64,000 bases of DNA, from NCBI RefSeq assembly GCF_028416635.1, contig NZ_CP114013.1, positions 2,418,001 to 2,482,000 on the forward strand, written 5' to 3'. Both the position numbers and the translations under genes were made by a program. The stretch is from Baekduia alba (GTDB lineage Bacteria > Actinomycetota > Thermoleophilia > Solirubrobacterales > Solirubrobacteraceae). Positions within the stretch are counted from its first letter, which is position 1. Each line of letters begins with the position of its first letter. The notes below the pieces were generated by a model. It was given only the letters and a program-made list of their open reading frames with translations, was not told where the DNA came from and made no database searches. This document shows positions 2,577 through 56,700 of this stretch, piece after piece.

Positions 2577-4118
2577 ATGGAGAGCGCGACGCTCACCTCG
2601 CCGAGCGCGCGACTGCGCGCCCTGCCGGAACGCGCCTGGGCGCGGGCCGGGTTCGCGCTGCTCTGCCTCGGGGCGCTCATCGGGTACCTGGTGTACCCGA
2701 CCTATCCGAACTACGACTCGGCCTACTCGCTGATCTGGGGCCGCGAGCTCGTCGACGGGACGCTGCCGTCCTTCGACGCCTATCGGACGCCGACCGAGCA
2801 TCCACTGGCCGTCGCGGTCGGCGCGGTGCTGTCGCTGCTGGGCGACACCGTCGGGCCGCGCACCTGGCTGCTGCTCACCGTCGCGGCCTTCTGCCTCCTG
2901 GTCGCCGGCGTCTACCGCCTGGGCCGCGCGGCGTTCGGGCCGTGGGTCGGCCTGGTCGCGGCGCTGCTGGTCCTCTCGCGCCTGGACTACGCGTTCCTGG
3001 CCGCGCGCGGCTACATCGACGTGCCGTACCTGGCGCTCGTGGCCTGGGCGGCGGCGTTCGAGACCGCCAGGCCGCGGCGCGGCGGCGTGGTCTGGGTCCT
3101 GCTGGTGCTCGCCGGGCTGCTGCGCCCGGAGGCGTGGCTGCTGGGCGGCGCCTACTGGCTGTGGTGCGGCTGGCCGGCGGAGTCCCCGCCCAGAGGGCTC
3201 GGATCCGCGGCGAGTGTTCGCCCAGAGGGCGAAACTCGCGACTGGCGGCGGCTCCTGCGAACCGCCGGCTACGCGGCGCTCGCGCCCGTCCTGTGGGCCC
3301 TCACGGACCTGCTCGTGACCGGCGACGCGCTCTTCTCCCTGCGCCACACCAGCTCGCTGGCCAACGACCTCCAGCGCACCAAGCCGGCCTCGGAGGCGCC
3401 GTCGTTCGCGGTCCACTCGCTGAACGCGACGCTGAAGTGGCCGGTGCTGATCGGCGCGGTCCTCGGCGTCGCGCTCGCGCTGGTCTACGCGCGGCGCCGT
3501 GCGACGGTCCCGCTCGCGCTCGCCGCCTCGGGCCTGCTCACCTTCGGCGTCATCGCCGCCGCCGGCCTCTCGGTGATCGATCGCTACCTCGCGGTGTCGG
3601 CGCTCGCCCTGATCGTCTTCGCCGCCTTCGCGATCGCCGGCTTCACGGTCCTGGCGCCGGGCCACCCGGCGCGCAGGCCGTGGATCGTCGCCGCGTGCGT
3701 CGTCGCGCTCGGTGGCGCCGCGTTCACGGCCTCGCATCTTCATCCTGGGTACATCGACCGTGAGCTCACCACCCGCCGCGAGCTGCGCCAGGAGCTGGCG
3801 CGGGTCGTCAAGACCAACGCCTTCAAGACCGCGAACCGCTGCGGCCCGGTGACCGTGCCCAACCACAAGCTCATCCCGGACGCGCGCTGGATCCTGCACG
3901 CCGACGCCGACGAGGTCCGGGCGCGCTCGGACCTGCCGGACTTCGGCCAGGACGCCAAGGGCGTCCAGGTGTTCGTGACCGGCCCGACGATGCTCACGAA
4001 CTCGACCTACGGGCCGTTCGTCCCCGGCTCGCGCGACGATGCACGGATCCAGATCCCCGGCCCCGGGCTCCGCCTGATCGACCGCAGCCCCCATTTCCTT
4101 GTCTATGCCTCCTGCTGA
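2577..4118 (+). CDS. Multispanning membrane protein, GT39/GT-C-like, paralogue 1
   Basis: 513 residues with many membrane helices and a soluble C-terminal part of about 110 residues. An early acidic loop motif (PNYDSAYSLIWGRELVDG) sits where GT-C glycosyltransferases carry catalytic acidic residues on the first extracytoplasmic loop. A second conserved region reads LRPEAWLLGGAYWLW. It is clearly homologous along its whole length to the next gene, for example PTEHPLAVA, RGYIDVPYLA and PNHKLIPDARWIL. Activity is inferred from topology and neighbours; family-level identification is tentative. A twin-hairpin repeat (3179-3240) is embedded in frame and encodes roughly residues 201-222 of a variable hydrophilic loop. 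Confidence 0.75.
   Translation: MESATLTSPSARLRALPERAWARAGFALLCLGALIGYLVYPTYPNYDSAYSLIWGRELVDGTLPSFDAYRTPTEHPLAVAVGAVLSLLGDTVGPRTWLLLTVAAFCLLVAGVYRLGRAAFGPWVGLVAALLVLSRLDYAFLAARGYIDVPYLALVAWAAAFETARPRRGGVVWVLLVLAGLLRPEAWLLGGAYWLWCGWPAESPPRGLGSAASVRPEGETRDWRRLLRTAGYAALAPVLWALTDLLVTGDALFSLRHTSSLANDLQRTKPASEAPSFAVHSLNATLKWPVLIGAVLGVALALVYARRRATVPLALAASGLLTFGVIAAAGLSVIDRYLAVSALALIVFAAFAIAGFTVLAPGHPARRPWIVAACVVALGGAAFTASHLHPGYIDRELTTRRELRQELARVVKTNAFKTANRCGPVTVPNHKLIPDARWILHADADEVRARSDLPDFGQDAKGVQVFVTGPTMLTNSTYGPFVPGSRDDARIQIPGPGLRLIDRSPHFLVYASC
3179..3240 (+). repeat. Twin-hairpin GCCC-AGA-GGGC repeat, copy A (inside a CDS)
   Basis: Hairpin 1 spans 3179-3206: outer arms GGAGTCC/GGATCC with one bulge, inner GCCC-AGA-GGGC. 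Hairpin 2 spans 3210-3239: GCGAGT, bulged G, TTCGCCC, loop AGA, GGGCGAA, ACTCGC, which is 13 base pairs. The spacer is 3 nt. The element is read through in frame by the membrane-protein gene. Copies B, C and D lie at 19166-19238 and 33376-33543. Confidence 0.8.
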
Positions 4119-5652
4119 CGTGGCGACCCCGCCCGCGCCGGCGTCCGACCCGCCGCCCGCGCGCACGGGCGTGCTCGCGCGCCTCGCCGCGCTGCCCTGG
4201 CCCGGCCTCGCGCTCGCCGCGCTGGCCATCGCCACGCTCGTCGGCTTCCTCGTCTACCCGACCTATCCCAACTACGACAGCTACTACTCGCTGATCTGGG
4301 GCCGGGAGATCCTGCACGGCCACCTCCCGAGCTTCGACGAGTACCGCTCGCCGACCGAGCACCCGCTCGCGGTCGCCTTCGGAGCGGCGCTGTCGCTGCT
4401 CGGCCGCCACGGCGACCGCGTGATGGTGTTCTTCACCGAGGCGTCGTTCGTCGTGCTGTGCGCCGGGATCTACCAGCTGGCGCGGCGCGCGTTCACGCCG
4501 CTGGTCGGCCTCGCCGCGGCGGGGATCCTGTGCACGCGCTTCGACTTCCCGTTCCTGGCCGCGCGCGCCTACATCGACATCCCGTACCTGGCGTTCGTCG
4601 TCTGGGCCGCGGCGCTGGAGGTCGGCCGGCCGCGCCGGGGCGGGATCGTCTGGGTCCTGCTGGCCTGCGCCGGGCTGCTGCGCCCGGAGGCGTGGCTGAT
4701 CATCGGGCTGTACTTCCTGTGGATGTGCAGCGGGGAGCTGGGGGTGGGTGGGGACGGGGTTGAGCAGCACCCGCACGGCCGCGCGCGGCTGATCCGCTGG
4801 GCGCGCTACGCCGCGTGGGCGGCCGTCGGGCCGGTCGTCTGGGTCATCACCGACTTCGTCGTCACCGGCCACCCGCTCTTCTCGCTGCAGCACACGACCG
4901 GCCTGGCCGAGGAGCTCGGCCGCACCAAGGGCCTGGCCGAGGTGCCGGACGCGACCAAGAAGTTCTTCCTCAACCTGGCCAAGCCGCCGGTGCTCTACGC
5001 GGGCATCGCGGGCTTCCTCGCCGCGCTCGTGCTCGCGCCGCGGCGCGTGCTGATGCCCGCGGCGCTGTGGGTGGTCGGGACCGGGACGTTCGTGATGGTC
5101 GGCGTCGCCGGCCTGTCGGTGATCGACCGCTACCTGCTCGTCCCGACGCTGATGGTCATGGTCTTCGCCGCGGTCGTGCTCGCCGGCTGGACGATGCTGC
5201 GCTCCGACCTCCTGATCCGCAAGGTCTGGGCGGTCGCGGCGCTGGCCGTGATCGTCTACGGCGTCGCGTTCACCGCGACGCGGGTCAACTTCCACAACTT
5301 CGACGCCGAGCTGCGGCTGCGCGGCAACTCGCACCGCTCGCTGGTGCGGCTGCTCGACCAGCCCGCGGTCAAGGCCGCGCGCAAGTGCGGGCCGGTGACG
5401 ACGCCCAACCACAAGCTCGTGCCCGACACGCGCTGGATCCTGGACGCGACCGCGTCGCAGGTCGTGGCGCGCGCCGACCCCGCGCAGGCCAGGCACATCG
5501 GCCGGGGCGTCTCGCTGTTCGTCGTCGACCGTGGCGCGCTGCTGCGCCAGGCGCTGGTCGCCGATACCGACGACCCGTTTGACAACGTCCCGCTGCCGGA
5601 CTTCCGCCGCCTGGCCTTCACCGACTACTACGCCGCGTATGTCCGCTGTTGA
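4105..5652 (+). CDS. Multispanning membrane protein, GT39/GT-C-like, paralogue 2
   Basis: 515 residues from ATG 4105; a TTG two codons earlier is possible. It is a full-length paralogue of the preceding gene, with the same acidic loop (PNYDSYYSLIWGREI), PTEHPLAVAFGAALSLLG, RAYIDIPYLAF and C-terminal PNHKLVPDTRWIL segments. In place of the repeat-encoded loop it has a different glycine/histidine-rich stretch (ELGVGGDGVEQHPHG). The start overlaps the upstream gene by 14 bases, and the next gene overlaps this one by exactly 14 bases as well. It probably transfers sugar from a lipid donor on the outer face of the membrane. Substrate unknown. Confidence 0.75.
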   Translation: MPPADVATPPAPASDPPPARTGVLARLAALPWPGLALAALAIATLVGFLVYPTYPNYDSYYSLIWGREILHGHLPSFDEYRSPTEHPLAVAFGAALSLLGRHGDRVMVFFTEASFVVLCAGIYQLARRAFTPLVGLAAAGILCTRFDFPFLAARAYIDIPYLAFVVWAAALEVGRPRRGGIVWVLLACAGLLRPEAWLIIGLYFLWMCSGELGVGGDGVEQHPHGRARLIRWARYAAWAAVGPVVWVITDFVVTGHPLFSLQHTTGLAEELGRTKGLAEVPDATKKFFLNLAKPPVLYAGIAGFLAALVLAPRRVLMPAALWVVGTGTFVMVGVAGLSVIDRYLLVPTLMVMVFAAVVLAGWTMLRSDLLIRKVWAVAALAVIVYGVAFTATRVNFHNFDAELRLRGNSHRSLVRLLDQPAVKAARKCGPVTTPNHKLVPDTRWILDATASQVVARADPAQARHIGRGVSLFVVDRGALLRQALVADTDDPFDNVPLPDFRRLAFTDYYAAYVRC

Positions 5653-18701: not shown

Positions 18702-19169
18702 ATGGACGTCCTGGTCCTCATTGACAAGCTCGACGACCTTGTCCACAACGCCAAGAAGGTCCCTCTCACCGACGAGGTGCGGGTGGATCGCGAGCAGATC
18801 TACGACATCTTGGATCAGATGCGCGCGACCATCCCTGAGGAGATCAAGCAGGCGCGGTGGATCGTCAAGGAGCGTCAGGAGATGCTCGCCGAGGCCAAGC
18901 GCGAGGCCGAGCGCATCGTCAAGGACGCCGTGCGCAAGCAGGAGGAGCTCGTCTCCGACCAGGAGGTGACGCGCGAAGCCGAGCGCGCCGCCGAGGAGAT
19001 CGTCGAGGACGCGCGGGCCCGCGAGCGGGAGATCCGCCTGGGCGCCGAGGACTACGCCGACGAGATCCTGAACACCCTTGAAGTGAACTTGTCCAAGTTC
19101 ATCGCCGCGGTCCGCCGCGGTCGCGAGCGGCTGCAGGGCAAGGAAGAGGAGTCGGTGGAAGCAGCCTGA
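18702..19169 (+). CDS. Coiled-coil protein, Rv2927c/ATP-synthase-b-like
   Basis: 155 residues, almost entirely charged helix. After an N-terminal VLIDKLDDLVHNAKKVPLTDEVRVD, a long heptad-rich segment (about 45-130, rich in E, R, A and K) resembles the b-subunit stator or DivIVA-type coiled coils. Position between coaD and the yceD/rpmF region matches mycobacterial Rv2927c homologues. The biochemical role is unknown; scaffolding near the division site is only a guess. The first hairpin of repeat copy B overlaps its stop codon. Confidence 0.7.
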   Translation: MDVLVLIDKLDDLVHNAKKVPLTDEVRVDREQIYDILDQMRATIPEEIKQARWIVKERQEMLAEAKREAERIVKDAVRKQEELVSDQEVTREAERAAEEIVEDARAREREIRLGAEDYADEILNTLEVNLSKFIAAVRRGRERLQGKEEESVEAA

Positions 19170-19238
19170 TCCTGCGGCCCAGAGGGCCGCGATCAGTCCG
19201 CTTCCATCGCGGGTGTCGGCCCAGGGGGCCGAACTCGC
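19166..19238 (+). repeat. Twin-hairpin GCCC-AGR-GGGC repeat, copy B
   Basis: Hairpin 1 (19166-19196): CTGATC, bulge CT, GCGGCCC, loop AGA, GGGCCGC, GATCAG. The TGA stop of the coiled-coil gene (19167-19169) lies in its left arm. Hairpin 2 (19209-19238): GCGGGT, bulged G, TCGGCCC, loop AGG, GGGCCGA, ACTCGC, with one G-T(U) wobble. The spacer is 12 nt. The element may also terminate transcription before the macro-domain gene. Confidence 0.8.
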
Positions 19239-19247
19239 CGCGTCGGG

Positions 19248-31738: not shown

Positions 31739-33406
31739 ATGCCCCAGGTGCAGTCTGTCCTCGACCGGGTCGGCAACACGGCGCAGGCCGTCAAGGTCCT
31801 CGCCGATGCCGGCGTCATCCGGCCCATGCGACCGGACAAGGTCGTCCACATGGCCTCGACGATGGTGCGCTGGGGGCCGACGCCCGCCGCCGGCTACAGC
31901 GTCTCGGCCGTCCGCCGCCCGGACAAGGTCGGGATCGTCGACGAGCTCGGCACGCTGACCTTCAGGGAGATCCACGAGCGCACCAACGCGCTGGCCAACG
32001 CGTGGAGCGACCTGGGCATCGGCGAGGGCGACGGCGTCGCGATCCTCTGCCGCAACCACCGCGGGTTCGTCGACGCGACCGTCGCGTGCTCCAAGTTGGG
32101 GGCCAACGCGTTGTACCTCAACACGATGTTCGCGGGGCCGCAGATCACCGACGTCTGCGCGCGCGAGAAGCCTAAGGCCATCGTGTACGACGAGGAGTTC
32201 GCCGACCTCGTCAAGGACGCCGGCAAGCGCCGCAAGCGCTTCGTCGCCTGGTTCGACGGGGAATCGGGCCCGCCCACCCAGCCGGCCGGCGACCCGCTCC
32301 TGGAGGACCTCATCCAGCGGGGCGACAGCGCCGACCTCGTCCCGCCGGCCGAGAAGGGCCGCGTCGTGATCCTCACCTCGGGCACGACCGGGACGCCGAA
32401 GGGCGCGAACCGCTCGCAGCCCAAGTCGCTGCTGCCCGCCGCCGGCCTGCTGTCCAAGATCCCGCTGCGCGCCGAGGAGCCGTGGATGGTCGCGGCGCCG
32501 ATGTTCCACTCCTGGGGCTTCGCGCACTTCACGCTCGGGATGGCGCTCGGCGCCCAGCTCGTCCTGCGCCGCCGCTTCGACCCCGAGGGCGCGCTCAGCG
32601 CGATCGCCCAGCACGAGGCCACGACGCTCGTCGTCGTCCCGGTGATGCTCAGCCGGATCCTCGAGCTCCCGCCCGAGACGATCGACCGCTATGACCTGCG
32701 CAGCCTGAAGATCATCGGGGCGAGCGGCAGCGCGCTGCCGGGCCCGCTGGCGACCGAGGTCATGGACCGCTTCGGCGACGTCCTCTACAACCTGTACGGG
32801 TCGACCGAGGTCGCGTGGGCGACGATCGCCCAGCCGACCGACCTGCGCGCCGCGCCCGGGACCGCCGGCCGGCCGCCGTTCGGGACGATCGTCAAGTTGT
32901 ACGACGACGACGGCAACGAGGTCGGCGACGGCGAGACCGGCCGGATCTTCGTGGGCAACGAGCTGGTCTTCGACGGCTACACCGGCGGCGGGAACAAGGC
33001 CATCATCAACGGCCTGATGTCCACCGGCGACGTCGGCCACATGGACGACGGCGGGCGCCTGTTCGTCGACGGTCGCGACGACGAGATGATCGTCAGCGGC
33101 GGCGAGAACGTCTTCCCGCGCGAGGTCGAGGACCTGCTCAGCCACCACGACGCGGTCGACGAGGCCGCGGTGGTCGGCGTCGACGACGCGAAGTTCGGCC
33201 AGCGCCTGCGCGCGTTCGTCGTGCTGACCGGCGGCGCCGGCGCGTCCGAGGACGACCTCAAGGCCTACGTGAAGTCCAACCTCGCGTCCTACAAGGTGCC
33301 GCGCGAGATCGTCTTCCTCGACGAGCTGCCGCGCAACGCGACGGGCAAGGTGCTCAAGCGCGAGCTGGCGAGCGACGACGTGGAGTCATCGCCCAGAGGG
33401 CGCTGA
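31739..33406 (+). CDS. Acyl-CoA synthetase (AMP-forming, FadD2-like)
   Basis: 555 residues. The ATP/AMP-binding motif is ILTSGTTGTPKGA. NLYGSTEVAW, STGDVGHMDDGGRLFVDGRDDEMIVSGGENVFP (hinge Asp) and the C-terminal PRNATGKVLKRE with its catalytic lysine complete the ANL-family set. It activates a fatty or aromatic acid through an acyl-AMP; chain length is not predictable. The last 10 residues or so (VESSPRGR) and the stop codon are encoded by the twin-hairpin repeat copy C, so the natural C-terminus has been remodelled. Ancestral length is probably about 10 residues shorter or different. Confidence 0.92.
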   Translation: MPQVQSVLDRVGNTAQAVKVLADAGVIRPMRPDKVVHMASTMVRWGPTPAAGYSVSAVRRPDKVGIVDELGTLTFREIHERTNALANAWSDLGIGEGDGVAILCRNHRGFVDATVACSKLGANALYLNTMFAGPQITDVCAREKPKAIVYDEEFADLVKDAGKRRKRFVAWFDGESGPPTQPAGDPLLEDLIQRGDSADLVPPAEKGRVVILTSGTTGTPKGANRSQPKSLLPAAGLLSKIPLRAEEPWMVAAPMFHSWGFAHFTLGMALGAQLVLRRRFDPEGALSAIAQHEATTLVVVPVMLSRILELPPETIDRYDLRSLKIIGASGSALPGPLATEVMDRFGDVLYNLYGSTEVAWATIAQPTDLRAAPGTAGRPPFGTIVKLYDDDGNEVGDGETGRIFVGNELVFDGYTGGGNKAIINGLMSTGDVGHMDDGGRLFVDGRDDEMIVSGGENVFPREVEDLLSHHDAVDEAAVVGVDDAKFGQRLRAFVVLTGGAGASEDDLKAYVKSNLASYKVPREIVFLDELPRNATGKVLKRELASDDVESSPRGR

Positions 33407-33543
33407 CTCCATAGCGAGCAATCGCCCAGGGGGCGATTCTCGCGGTTCGTGGCACCGCACGACGTGGAGTCATCGCCCAGAGGGCGCTGACTCCATAGCG
33501 AGCAATCGCCCAGGGGGCGATTCTCGCGGCTCATGGCACCACC
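33376..33543. repeat. Tandem twin-hairpin repeats, copies C and D
   Basis: Two 84-bp units (33376-33459 and 33460-33543) differ at only a few positions near their ends. Each holds hairpin 1 (GGAGTCA, T/C mismatch, CGCCC, loop AGA, GGGCG, TGACTCC) and hairpin 2 (GCGAG, bulged C, AATCGCCC, loop AGG, GGGCGATT, CTCGC), 3 nt apart. Unit C contains the stop of the acyl-CoA synthetase gene. Unit D contains the stop of the convergent dehydrogenase gene. Possible bidirectional terminator. Confidence 0.85.
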
Positions 33544-53704: not shown

Positions 53705-56700
53705 GTGCGGCGGTCATCCGGTGCCCTGCTCTGCCTGCTCGCGGCGATCGCCGCGCTGCTGGCGCCTGCCGCCGCGGGCGCCGACGGCCTCCGCGACCCG
53801 CTCTCGGTCTCGCCGCTCGCGTCGCTGACCTCGGGCCCGCCCGTCAACGTCGGCGTGCCCACCGTGGCGGGGACGCTCATCGAGGGCCAGACCCTCGTCG
53901 CCGCCTCCGGCTCCTGGAACCCGTCGGCGACGAGCGCGACCTACCAGTGGCAGCGCGACACCGGCTCGGGCTACGCCGACATCTCCGGCGCGACGGCCAC
54001 GACCTACACCCTCCTCGCCGCCGACGTCGGCGCGTCGCTGCGCGTGCACGTCGTCGCGACCAACGCGTCGGGCAGCGGCGCAGCGGACGCCGACGGCGTC
54101 GGCCCGATCATCGCCGGCGACCCCGTCAACACGGTCACGCCCGTGATCGCCGGCAACCTCCAGGGCGGCAGCACGCTGATCGCCGGCGTCGGCAGCTGGC
54201 ACCCGGCCGGCACGTCCTACAGCTTCAAGTGGCAGCGCGACAGCGGCTCTGGCTACGCCGACATCGCGGGCGCGACCGCGATGACCTACACGACGGTCCC
54301 GGCGGACGTCACCGCCTCGATCCGCGTCCGGGTGACGGCGGTCAACGGCTTCGCGTCGGTCGTCGCGACCTCCAACGTCCTCGGCCCGATCACCACGGGC
54401 AAGCCGGCCAGCGTCGTCGCGCCCGTGATCACCGGGACGGCGAAGCGCGGCGTCGCGCTCGCCGCCAACTCCGGCAGCTGGAGCCCGGCGCCGACGAGCT
54501 ACGCCTACCAGTGGCAGACCGACGCCGGCTCCGGCTACGTGGACATCGCCGGCGCGACGTCGACGAGCTACACGCCGGTCGGCGGCGACCTCGGCCATCC
54601 GCTGCAGGTCGTCGTCACCGCCACCAACTCCTTCGGGTCGACGGCCGCGACCTCCGCGGCCACCGCCGCCGTCGCCGCCGATCCCCCGGTGAACGTCGGC
54701 ACGCCGTCGATCGCGGGCACCGCCAAGCGGACGTTCACGCTCACGGGCTCGGCCGGATCGTGGTCGCCGGCCGGCGCGGCCTTCACCTACCAGTGGCAGC
54801 GCGACACCGGCTCGGGCTTCGCCGACATCTCCGGCGCGACCGCCTCGTCCTACACCTTGGTCACGGCCGACGTCGGCGCGACGGTGCGCGTCAGGGTCAA
54901 GGCCACCAACGTGGACGGCAACGCCGTCGCCGCGTCGGCCCAGACCGCCGCGGTCGCCGCCGCGACGCCGGGCTCCTCGGTCGCGCCGGCGATCACGCAG
55001 GCCAACCGCATCGGCGAGGCGGTCACGACCTCCGACGGCTCATGGAACCCCGCGGCCGCGTCCTACGCCTACCAGTGGCAGCGGCGCGTCGCCGGCAGCT
55101 ACGTCGACATCTCCGGCGCCACGAGCAGGACCTACACGTTGGTCACGGCCGACGTGGGGACGACGATCCGCTCCAAGGTCACCGCGACCAACGCCGACGG
55201 CACCGGCGCCGGCTACTCGGCGGCGTCGCCGACGATCGTCGCGCCGCCCGTCCCGCCGACGACGATCGCGGCGCCGGCCGGCACGCTGACCGACACCAAC
55301 ACCTTGACGATCGCCCCGGGCGTCTGGACGCCGTCGGCGACGACGCTCACCTACCAGTGGCTGCGCTGCCCGGCCGGCGCGACCGCCGTCGGGGGCTGCG
55401 TGACGATCGGCGCCGGCCAGTCCTACACCTTGGTCGGTCCGGACGTCGCGCACACGATCGCGGTCCGCGTGACCGGCATGGCGGGCGGCGTCTCGACGGT
55501 GGCGACGTCGACCTTCACCGCCGACGTCACCGGCCGGGCGCTCACGCTCGTCACCGCGCCGGCGATCAGCGGGACCGTCGAGGTCGCCGCGACCGTCCAC
55601 GCGGTCCCTGCCCTCTGGAGCGTCCCGACGCTCACCGAGCGCTACCAGTGGCAGCGCTGCGCGGCGGACGGCAGCGCGTGCGTCGACATCGCCGGCGCCA
55701 CCCGCCCGGACTACAAGGTCGCGGTCGCCGACAAGACCCACGCGCTGGTCGTCCACGAGACCGCGACGTCGTGGGGCCGGACAAGCACCGCCGACTCCAC
55801 GTTCGCGGTCGTCGACGACCAGCCGCTGCCGGGCAACGTCGACGCGCCGCTGGTCACCGGGACGGCGAAGCGCACCGGCAACCTGCAGGTCGCGCGCGGC
55901 TCGTGGGCGAACAACCCGACCGGCTTCAGCTACTCCTGGCAGCGCTGCGCGAGCGACGGCACGGGCTGCGCGGCGATCGCCGGGGAGACGCGCGCCAACC
56001 ACATCCTGAGCTCGGCCGACGTCGGGCACACGATCCGCGGAGCGGTCACGGCGACCAACACGGAGGGGTCGGTCCTCGCGGTCTCGGCGCCGACCGCGGT
56101 CGTCGCGGCGGTGCTGCCCCAGCTGCTGAGCACCGGCGCGATCCACGGCACGCTGCAGGTGCCGCAGATGATCCAGGCGTACACGTCGAGCTGGAGCACG
56201 ACGCCGGACACGCGCTTCGCCTACCAGTGGCAGCGCTGCGACGCGGCGGGCGCCAACTGCGTGGACATCGTGGGCGCGCGCACGCAGGCCTACCGGCTGC
56301 AGACGGCCGACGCGCGCGCCCGCCTGCGCGTGGTCCACGTCGCGACGAACCCGGACGGGTCGACGAGCGCGGCCACGCCGGTGACCGCGGCGATCCTGCC
56401 GGCGCCCCCGGGCGTCACGACCACGCCGCGGCTCAGCGGCGTCGGCCGCACCGACGTCGGCAAGACGCTGACGCTCACGCCGGGCCGCTGGAGCGCGGCC
56501 ACGGAGATCACGACCAAGACGCTGGAGTTCTGGCGCTGCTCGCCGCGCTGCGTGTCGCTGCCGACGAACGGCGCGGGGTCCTACGTGCTGACCGACGCCG
56601 ACGCGGGCGCGCTGATCCGCGGCTCGGAGACGGCGGTCGGCCCGGGTGGGACGGTCGTGTCCTGGGCGGCGTCGTGGCTGGGGCCGGTGCACTCGGCGGC

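What the first reader, a model, noticed from the sequence alone, without database searches (positions are those of the whole stretch)
3179..3240. Twin-hairpin repeat embedded in frame in a membrane-protein gene
Copy A encodes about 20 residues of a hydrophilic loop. The adjacent paralogue (4105-5652) has an unrelated loop at the same position while flanking sequence aligns well. The repeat therefore seems to have inserted into, and been tolerated by, a variable loop without a frameshift.
Basis: partly seen in the sequence, partly recalled or inferred. Interest (0 to 1): 0.6.

Follow-up and report, generated by a model that had tools for sequence, protein, structure and literature searches.

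The report
Palindromic repeat inserted inside a gene
A short repeat that folds into two hairpins, and that normally sits exactly at the stop codons of genes in this family of soil bacteria, has in one case landed inside a membrane-protein gene and adds 21 amino acids to a loop without breaking the reading frame; this is a new variant of a known kind of bacterial repeat.

Summary
Observation and interpretation hold. Window 3177-3239 (63 nt, 21 codons) is a twin hairpin lying in frame in a 513-aa membrane-protein gene. The insert is missing in all five same-genus orthologues that can be read (59-83% identical, loops of 11-23 residues against 37) and in the neighbouring paralogue. It belongs to a dispersed family: 33 copies in this 5.86-Mb genome, with matches in 12 of 101 relatives, all in the same family (Solirubrobacterales by named records). 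Each copy is about 64 nt: two hairpins in head-to-tail order, each 6 bp, a bulged base (mostly G), 7 bp and usually an AGR loop. The stems covary strongly (21 of 26 pairs changed on both sides). New here is the usual position: at 42 of 64 sites the stop codon of the co-oriented upstream gene lies within -10..+8 of the element, often inside the first stem, whose 3' arm complements it. Copy A is the exception. REPs near stops and in-frame REP/RPE insertions are already published, so this is a new variant of a known kind: head-to-tail, untagged, in Actinomycetota. No transposase link was shown. G.T and A.C cells are about equal (41:34), which points to DNA-level arm correction more than to selection on RNA.

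The parts
3177..3239 (+). Copy A, twin hairpin of 63 nt, 21 codons in frame inside the membrane-protein gene
   Evidence: model match 3177-3240, 75.9 bits; folds -24.3 kcal/mol as DNA with flanks 3175-3245, z -4.39; absent from 5 of 5 readable same-genus orthologues
3177..3208 (+). Hairpin 1 of copy A (imperfect: stem GCGGA/TCCGC, inner stem GCCC-AGA-GGGC)
   Evidence: fold
3210..3239 (+). Hairpin 2 of copy A (GCGAGT, bulged G, TTCGCCC-AGA-GGGCGAA, ACTCGC)
   Evidence: fold
2577..4118 (+). Host gene, 513 aa, polytopic membrane protein, possibly a GT-C-type glycosyltransferase (its paralogue gives a weak PMT_2 match; the host protein itself gives none)
4105..5652 (+). Tandem paralogue without the element; unrelated G-rich loop at the same place
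   Evidence: weak Pfam PMT_2, E 6e-4, below its cut-off
33380..33444 (+). Family copy at the end of a co-oriented gene; the gene runs into hairpin 1 and stops at 33406 (..VESSPRGR*)
33464..33528 (+). Tandem second copy, 98% identical over an 82-nt unit, spacing 84
19155..19239 (+). Diverged family copy; stop codon (TGA, 19167-19169) of the upstream gene lies inside the 5' arm of hairpin 1
   Evidence: 43.4 bits; RNA fold z -6.20

Best explanation
Copy A is a member of a dispersed REP-like palindromic repeat family of Solirubrobacterales. One unit is about 64 nt: two hairpins in the same direction, each with a 6-bp outer stem, one bulged base (mostly G), a 7-bp inner stem and usually an AGR loop. 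Shown: units are present in about 33 copies, near-identical at unrelated genes, absent from many orthologous sites, patchy between species, and usually placed at the stop codon of the upstream gene. Inferred: units spread as small non-autonomous DNA by an enzyme not identified here; they persist where they do no harm, and at gene ends they give the mRNA a strong hairpin at or just after the stop. Copy A landed inside a gene. It survived because its 63 nt keep the frame, contain no stop in that frame, and fall in a hydrophilic loop between membrane helices whose length already varies.
For: Family and copy number. Identical 64-nt units at unrelated genes (L029 and L030). Empty orthologous site for copy A, 0 of 5. 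Empty sites for other copies: FKBP-like gene 6 of 6 relatives, sigma-factor-like gene 5 of 5, ferredoxin-like gene 6 of 6 (gene names recalled from their sequences, no family search). Patchy range: 12 of 101 genomes in the relatives search, own included, and 5 of 299 class genomes, own included. Stop anchoring at 42 of 64 sites. Covariation: 21 of 26 pairs changed on both sides, shuffles 13.9 +- 1.1; cells changed on both sides 350 against 101 +- 7. Stop-poor units: 17 of 33 own copies open in all six frames, against 15% of composition shuffles.
Against: No mobilising enzyme is shown. A Y1 (IS200-like) transposase domain is in 7 of 12 genomes with the repeat and 10 of 89 without (Fisher p 5e-4, kinship not corrected). 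But G001, with 27 matches and one contig, has none; G002 and G005 have it without repeats; and no unit lies near the 12 Y1 loci scanned (best E 0.33). No target-site duplication could be read, because flanks are too diverged. Four sites (genes g5, g7, g8, g10) carry a unit in three or four species, own included, so some copies are old.
Confidence: 0.85

Rival explanations
1. The unit is a functional 3'-end RNA element (terminator, RNase barrier or ribosome-stalling hairpin at the stop codon) kept by selection on the transcript; copy A is a stray copy.
For: 42 of 64 sites lie at a stop codon. Units persist at the same gene end in up to four species with different but still paired stems, e.g. 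genes g7, g8, g10. E. coli REPs within 15 nt of a stop are reported to stall ribosomes (PMC12306157, section 8 and passages).
Against: No run of four T in the 30 nt after any of the 33 copies (read), so not a canonical intrinsic terminator. G.T and A.C cells are about equal, 41 to 34 (p 0.49), whereas selection on RNA should favour G.U. Two other genomes of the genus, G002 and G005, have no unit at E 1e-3.
Confidence: 0.4
2. The stems are kept paired by template-switch correction of the DNA palindrome during replication, not by selection; arms then also copy host sequence such as the gene end into the opposite arm.
For: Many double changes with few G.T or A.C intermediates (75 of 2291 cells). 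At site L034 the 5' arm GGCGTAAGCC is also present in G006, which has no unit there, and the 3' arm is complementary to it. At the 19155 site the two arms changed together in three species. The mechanism is described in PMC8794818 (abstract and introduction seen).
Against: Several own copies share one GGGAAC/GTTCCC stem at unrelated genes, so arms also travel with the unit. G006 may have lost a unit and kept its 5' arm.
Confidence: 0.4
3. Copy A is an ancestral loop of this protein from which the repeat family was derived.
For: None found beyond the copy being in frame.
Against: 0 of 5 readable orthologues has it, and units with higher model scores lie elsewhere in this and other genomes.
Confidence: 0.02

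Closest known systems
REP sequences (GTAG-tagged) and REPINs/BIMEs
   Same: Short palindromes, dispersed, mostly between genes and close to the 3' ends of ORFs, sometimes supplying the stop codon, sometimes inside ORFs as dimers encoding 20-30 residues (PMC3733652, section 15 read).
   Different: No GTAG head in most copies; [quoted passage not shown] no RAYT beside the units; phylum Actinomycetota, not among those named for GTAG repeats in the part of the sentence seen.
Rickettsia palindromic elements (RPE) and other CGTC-tagged repeats
   Same: In-frame insertion of a palindromic repeat into protein genes, tolerated by the host (PMC10969869 passages).
   Different: No CGTC tag in the consensus; here only 1 of 29 own sites is fully internal and 4 more add a C-terminal tail.
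REPs within 15 nt of a stop codon in E. coli
   Same: Hairpin at or just after the stop; 446 of 4072 REPs there (PMC12306157).
   Different: Here 42 of 64 sites, and the stop is often inside the stem.
Template-switch-maintained hairpins (PMC8794818)
   Same: Double compensatory changes with few intermediates.
   Different: That work is on RNA genes; this would be a dispersed repeat.

Membership tests
REP sequence (GTAG class) | GTAG head at the 5' foot of the palindrome | tested here: not met
   GTAG at the foot in 6 of 76 matches of own, G001 and G006; any nTAG in 25 of 76. The spacer before hairpin 2 is mostly TT or TC.
REP sequence (GTAG class) | dispersed short palindromes in many copies, close to gene 3' ends | tested here: met
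   33 copies; 42 of 64 sites at a stop codon
REP sequence (GTAG class) | associated with a RAYT (Y1) transposase gene flanked by the repeats | tested here: not met
   one Y1 gene in the genome; no unit near 12 of 13 Y1 loci held
REPIN / BIME | two REPs in opposite orientation | tested here: not met
   both hairpins read CCC-AGR-GGG on the same strand
CGTC-tagged repeats / RPE | CGTC at one end | tested here: not met
   consensus of A2 has none
Rho-independent terminator | U-tract directly after the hairpin | tested here: not met
   no TTTT in 30 nt downstream of 33 copies (read)
Known Rfam RNA family | match at gathering score | tested here: not met
   0 matches in the window
Integron attC site | R'/R'' core sites and an IntI integrase | not tested
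   considered because attC sites also lie at stop codons (recalled); the integrase was not searched

The most novel reading that the evidence does not exclude
A repeat that tailors itself to the stop codon: the first hairpin's 5' arm is host DNA (last codons and stop) and its 3' arm is a templated inverted copy of it, made at insertion or by later template switching, so that each host gene ends inside a custom-made hairpin.
Probability: 0.2. Interest if true: 0.7.

Novelty: new variant of a known kind. Interest (0 to 1): 0.42.

Why it matters
It adds a repeat family in Actinomycetota with a head-to-tail architecture and an unusually exact address, the stop codon, and it gives a clean case of a dispersed palindrome being turned into protein. 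Because sister species have empty, old and new copies at the same gene ends, it could be used to ask whether stem pairing in such repeats is kept by selection on RNA or by template switching in DNA.

Tried and rejected
RAYT mobilisation: examined through PF01797 and not supported within the genus. CTAG or GTAG as a fixed target: not needed, because genes of the window use TAG 26, TGA 24, TAA 3 of 53, so TAG-rich feet follow from ordinary stop usage. Canonical terminator: no U-tract. Rfam: nothing. Structure of the host protein: AlphaFold model too weak to use (mean pLDDT 53.8, pTM 0.48); it only places residues 199-221 in a coil between two helices. Papers: searches for such repeats with Solirubrobacter, with RAYT and Actinobacteria and with Conexibacter gave no report of this family; the library holds only open papers.

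Limits: gene ends come from a simple codon-usage caller of my own, not a published one; the L030 gene end was set by hand. Tandem second copies were dropped before counting sites. G003, G004 and G016 copies were not put in the stop-codon count. The null for stop placement is my own assumption (random spot and orientation in a 100-nt gap, or uniform in the free gap). Alignment A3 was fitted to the model, so its pair counts lean towards it; some antisense rows remained, and the last 10 of 106 rows were removed. Relatives at gene g9 in G001 and G005 (61-65% identical) may be paralogues.

Full report
What is there. The reported repeat is real. It covers 3177-3239 of the window: 63 nt, 21 codons (AESPPRGLGSAASVRPEGETR) in the frame of the gene at 2577-4118. 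It folds into two hairpins, with z -4.39 as DNA and -5.04 as RNA. The tandem paralogue has a different, G-rich loop at that place, while its flanks align at 74-76% DNA identity.

The family. A DNA search of the own genome with the region gave 22 matches, itself included. A covariance model from nine copies gave 33 copies down to E 0.0022, out of 48 matches listed at E 1 or better, among which some of the weaker ones are antisense to known copies. The unit is two hairpins in the same direction. Each has a 6-bp outer stem, one bulged base (G in 61 of 96 rows for hairpin 1 and 76 of 96 for hairpin 2), a 7-bp inner stem and usually an AGG or AGA loop. Some copies are in tandem. In the window there are four: copy A, the pair at 33380-33444 and 33464-33528, and a diverged one at 19155-19239.

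Range. With the model, 12 of 101 genomes (own included) have a match at E 1e-3 or better, all in the same family; of the six other genomes of the genus, G002 and G005 have none. In a class-wide sample 5 of 299 genomes match at E 1e-4, all in the same family. An exact pattern in named genomes hit 11 stretches, all Solirubrobacterales (Conexibacter sp. MAGs, Candidatus Solirubrobacter pratensis and unnamed MAGs); that tool may leave out the window's own genome.

The insertion in copy A. The gene has five intact orthologues in the genus, at 83, 78, 75, 75 and 59% identity. None has the insert. Between invariant W196 and A234 they have 11, 23, 18, 18 and 19 residues, the paralogue 33, and this protein 37. 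Taking out 21 residues leaves 16, within the natural range. The sixth genome, G002, is interrupted by unrelated sequence there. So the insertion is specific to this lineage, in frame, and in a loop that already varies.

Where the other copies sit. Gene ends were called with a simple codon-usage method. Counting each tandem array once, 64 sites were examined: 29 own, 22 in G001 and 13 in G006. At 42 of 64 the stop codon of the upstream gene in the same direction lies between -10 and +8 of the unit's start. At 8 the gene runs into or through the unit (copy A included), at 10 there is no upstream gene in that direction, and 4 are others (L030 set by hand). At the 16 sites with a same-strand downstream gene, placement so close to the stop has a combined chance of about 1e-23 under uniform placement in the free gap; this ignores any constraint from the downstream promoter.

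Are these the native stops? For ten own genes the ends of orthologues were read. No unit was present in the relatives for the FKBP-like gene (6 of 6), the sigma-factor-like gene (5 of 5), the ferredoxin-like gene (6 of 6), gene g2 (5 of 5), gene g9 (5 of 5) and gene g3 (4 of 4 readable; the fifth is cut off in the print), and in most of these the protein ends at nearly the same residue. So the units do not truncate genes; they sit at the old stop. At four genes units are shared: g5 (own, G003, G006), g7 (own, G001, G003, G006), g8 (own, G001, G004, G006) and g10 (own, G001, G006).

Stems. On 100 distinct rows 21 of 26 pairs have changes on both sides (shuffles 13.9 +- 1.1), and sliding the 3' partners destroys pairing. 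G.T cells are 41 and A.C cells 34 of 2291, no excess of G.T (p 0.49). That is unlike selection on one RNA strand and fits correction of DNA palindromes by template switching, a mechanism described for RNA genes (PMC8794818, abstract and introduction). In gene g2 the first stem's 5' arm, GGCGTAAGCC with the stop inside, is also present in G006, which has no unit, and the 3' arm is complementary to it. At the 19155 site own, G006 and G001 differ in both arms and still pair. These cases suggest that arms can be copied from the host, but most units carry their arms with them: L029, L030, L031 and L032 share one stem.

Coding copies. Besides copy A, four own copies are read as protein at the end of genes: L032 and L043 whole, L036 and the window copy at 33380 in part. 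The relatives read for L032, L043 and L036 have other tails; for the 33380 copy G003 shares the coding arrangement and G006 has the unit after its own stop. Units are poor in stops: 17 of 33 own copies are open in all six frames, against 15% of shuffles, which makes such fusions easy.

How it moves. Unknown. A Y1 transposase domain is present in 7 of 12 genomes with units and 10 of 89 without, but not in G001, which has 27 matches on one contig, and no unit lies beside 12 of 13 Y1 loci held (L086 was not given). The link is not established.

Compared with the known. The 2013 survey of GTAG- and CGTC-tagged repeats (PMC3733652, section 15 read and other passages seen) already describes REPs next to 3' ends, REPs that give the stop codon, and REP dimers inside ORFs encoding 20-30 residues. 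Rickettsia elements are the best-known in-frame case (PMC10969869 passages). E. coli REPs within 15 nt of a stop are thought to act on translation (PMC12306157, abstract, section 8 and passages). RAYT-type REPs carry a GT(A/G)G head (PMC2817692 passages). The present family fails the GTAG and CGTC tags, the opposite orientation and the RAYT link, so it is not filed as a member of those classes; it behaves like them. It is an untagged, head-to-tail family that I found no report of.

Verdict. Interest 0.42.

Noticed in passing
window 53892-55242: Five direct repeats of 223 nt at a 282-nt spacing, 65-70% alike to one reference copy: probably a repeated protein domain.
   Followed up: no
window 4735-4800: The paralogue's loop at the same place is G-rich and also longer (33 residues) than the loops of the orthologues of the host gene; its origin was not traced.
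   Followed up: no
L009 1264-1839 (minus): The genome's only Y1 (IS200-like) transposase gene, 191 aa, single copy, without twin hairpins nearby.
   Followed up: partly
L106 about 545-790: In genome G002 the orthologue of the host gene is interrupted by unrelated sequence of lower GC (possible insertion element or assembly fault).
   Followed up: no
L146 1525-1862: Four twin-hairpin units in tandem at 91-nt spacing with identical 65-nt cores in G001: recent tandem growth.
   Followed up: no
L040, L147, L160, L165: In several convergent gene pairs the unit fills almost the whole gap between the two stop codons.
   Followed up: partly
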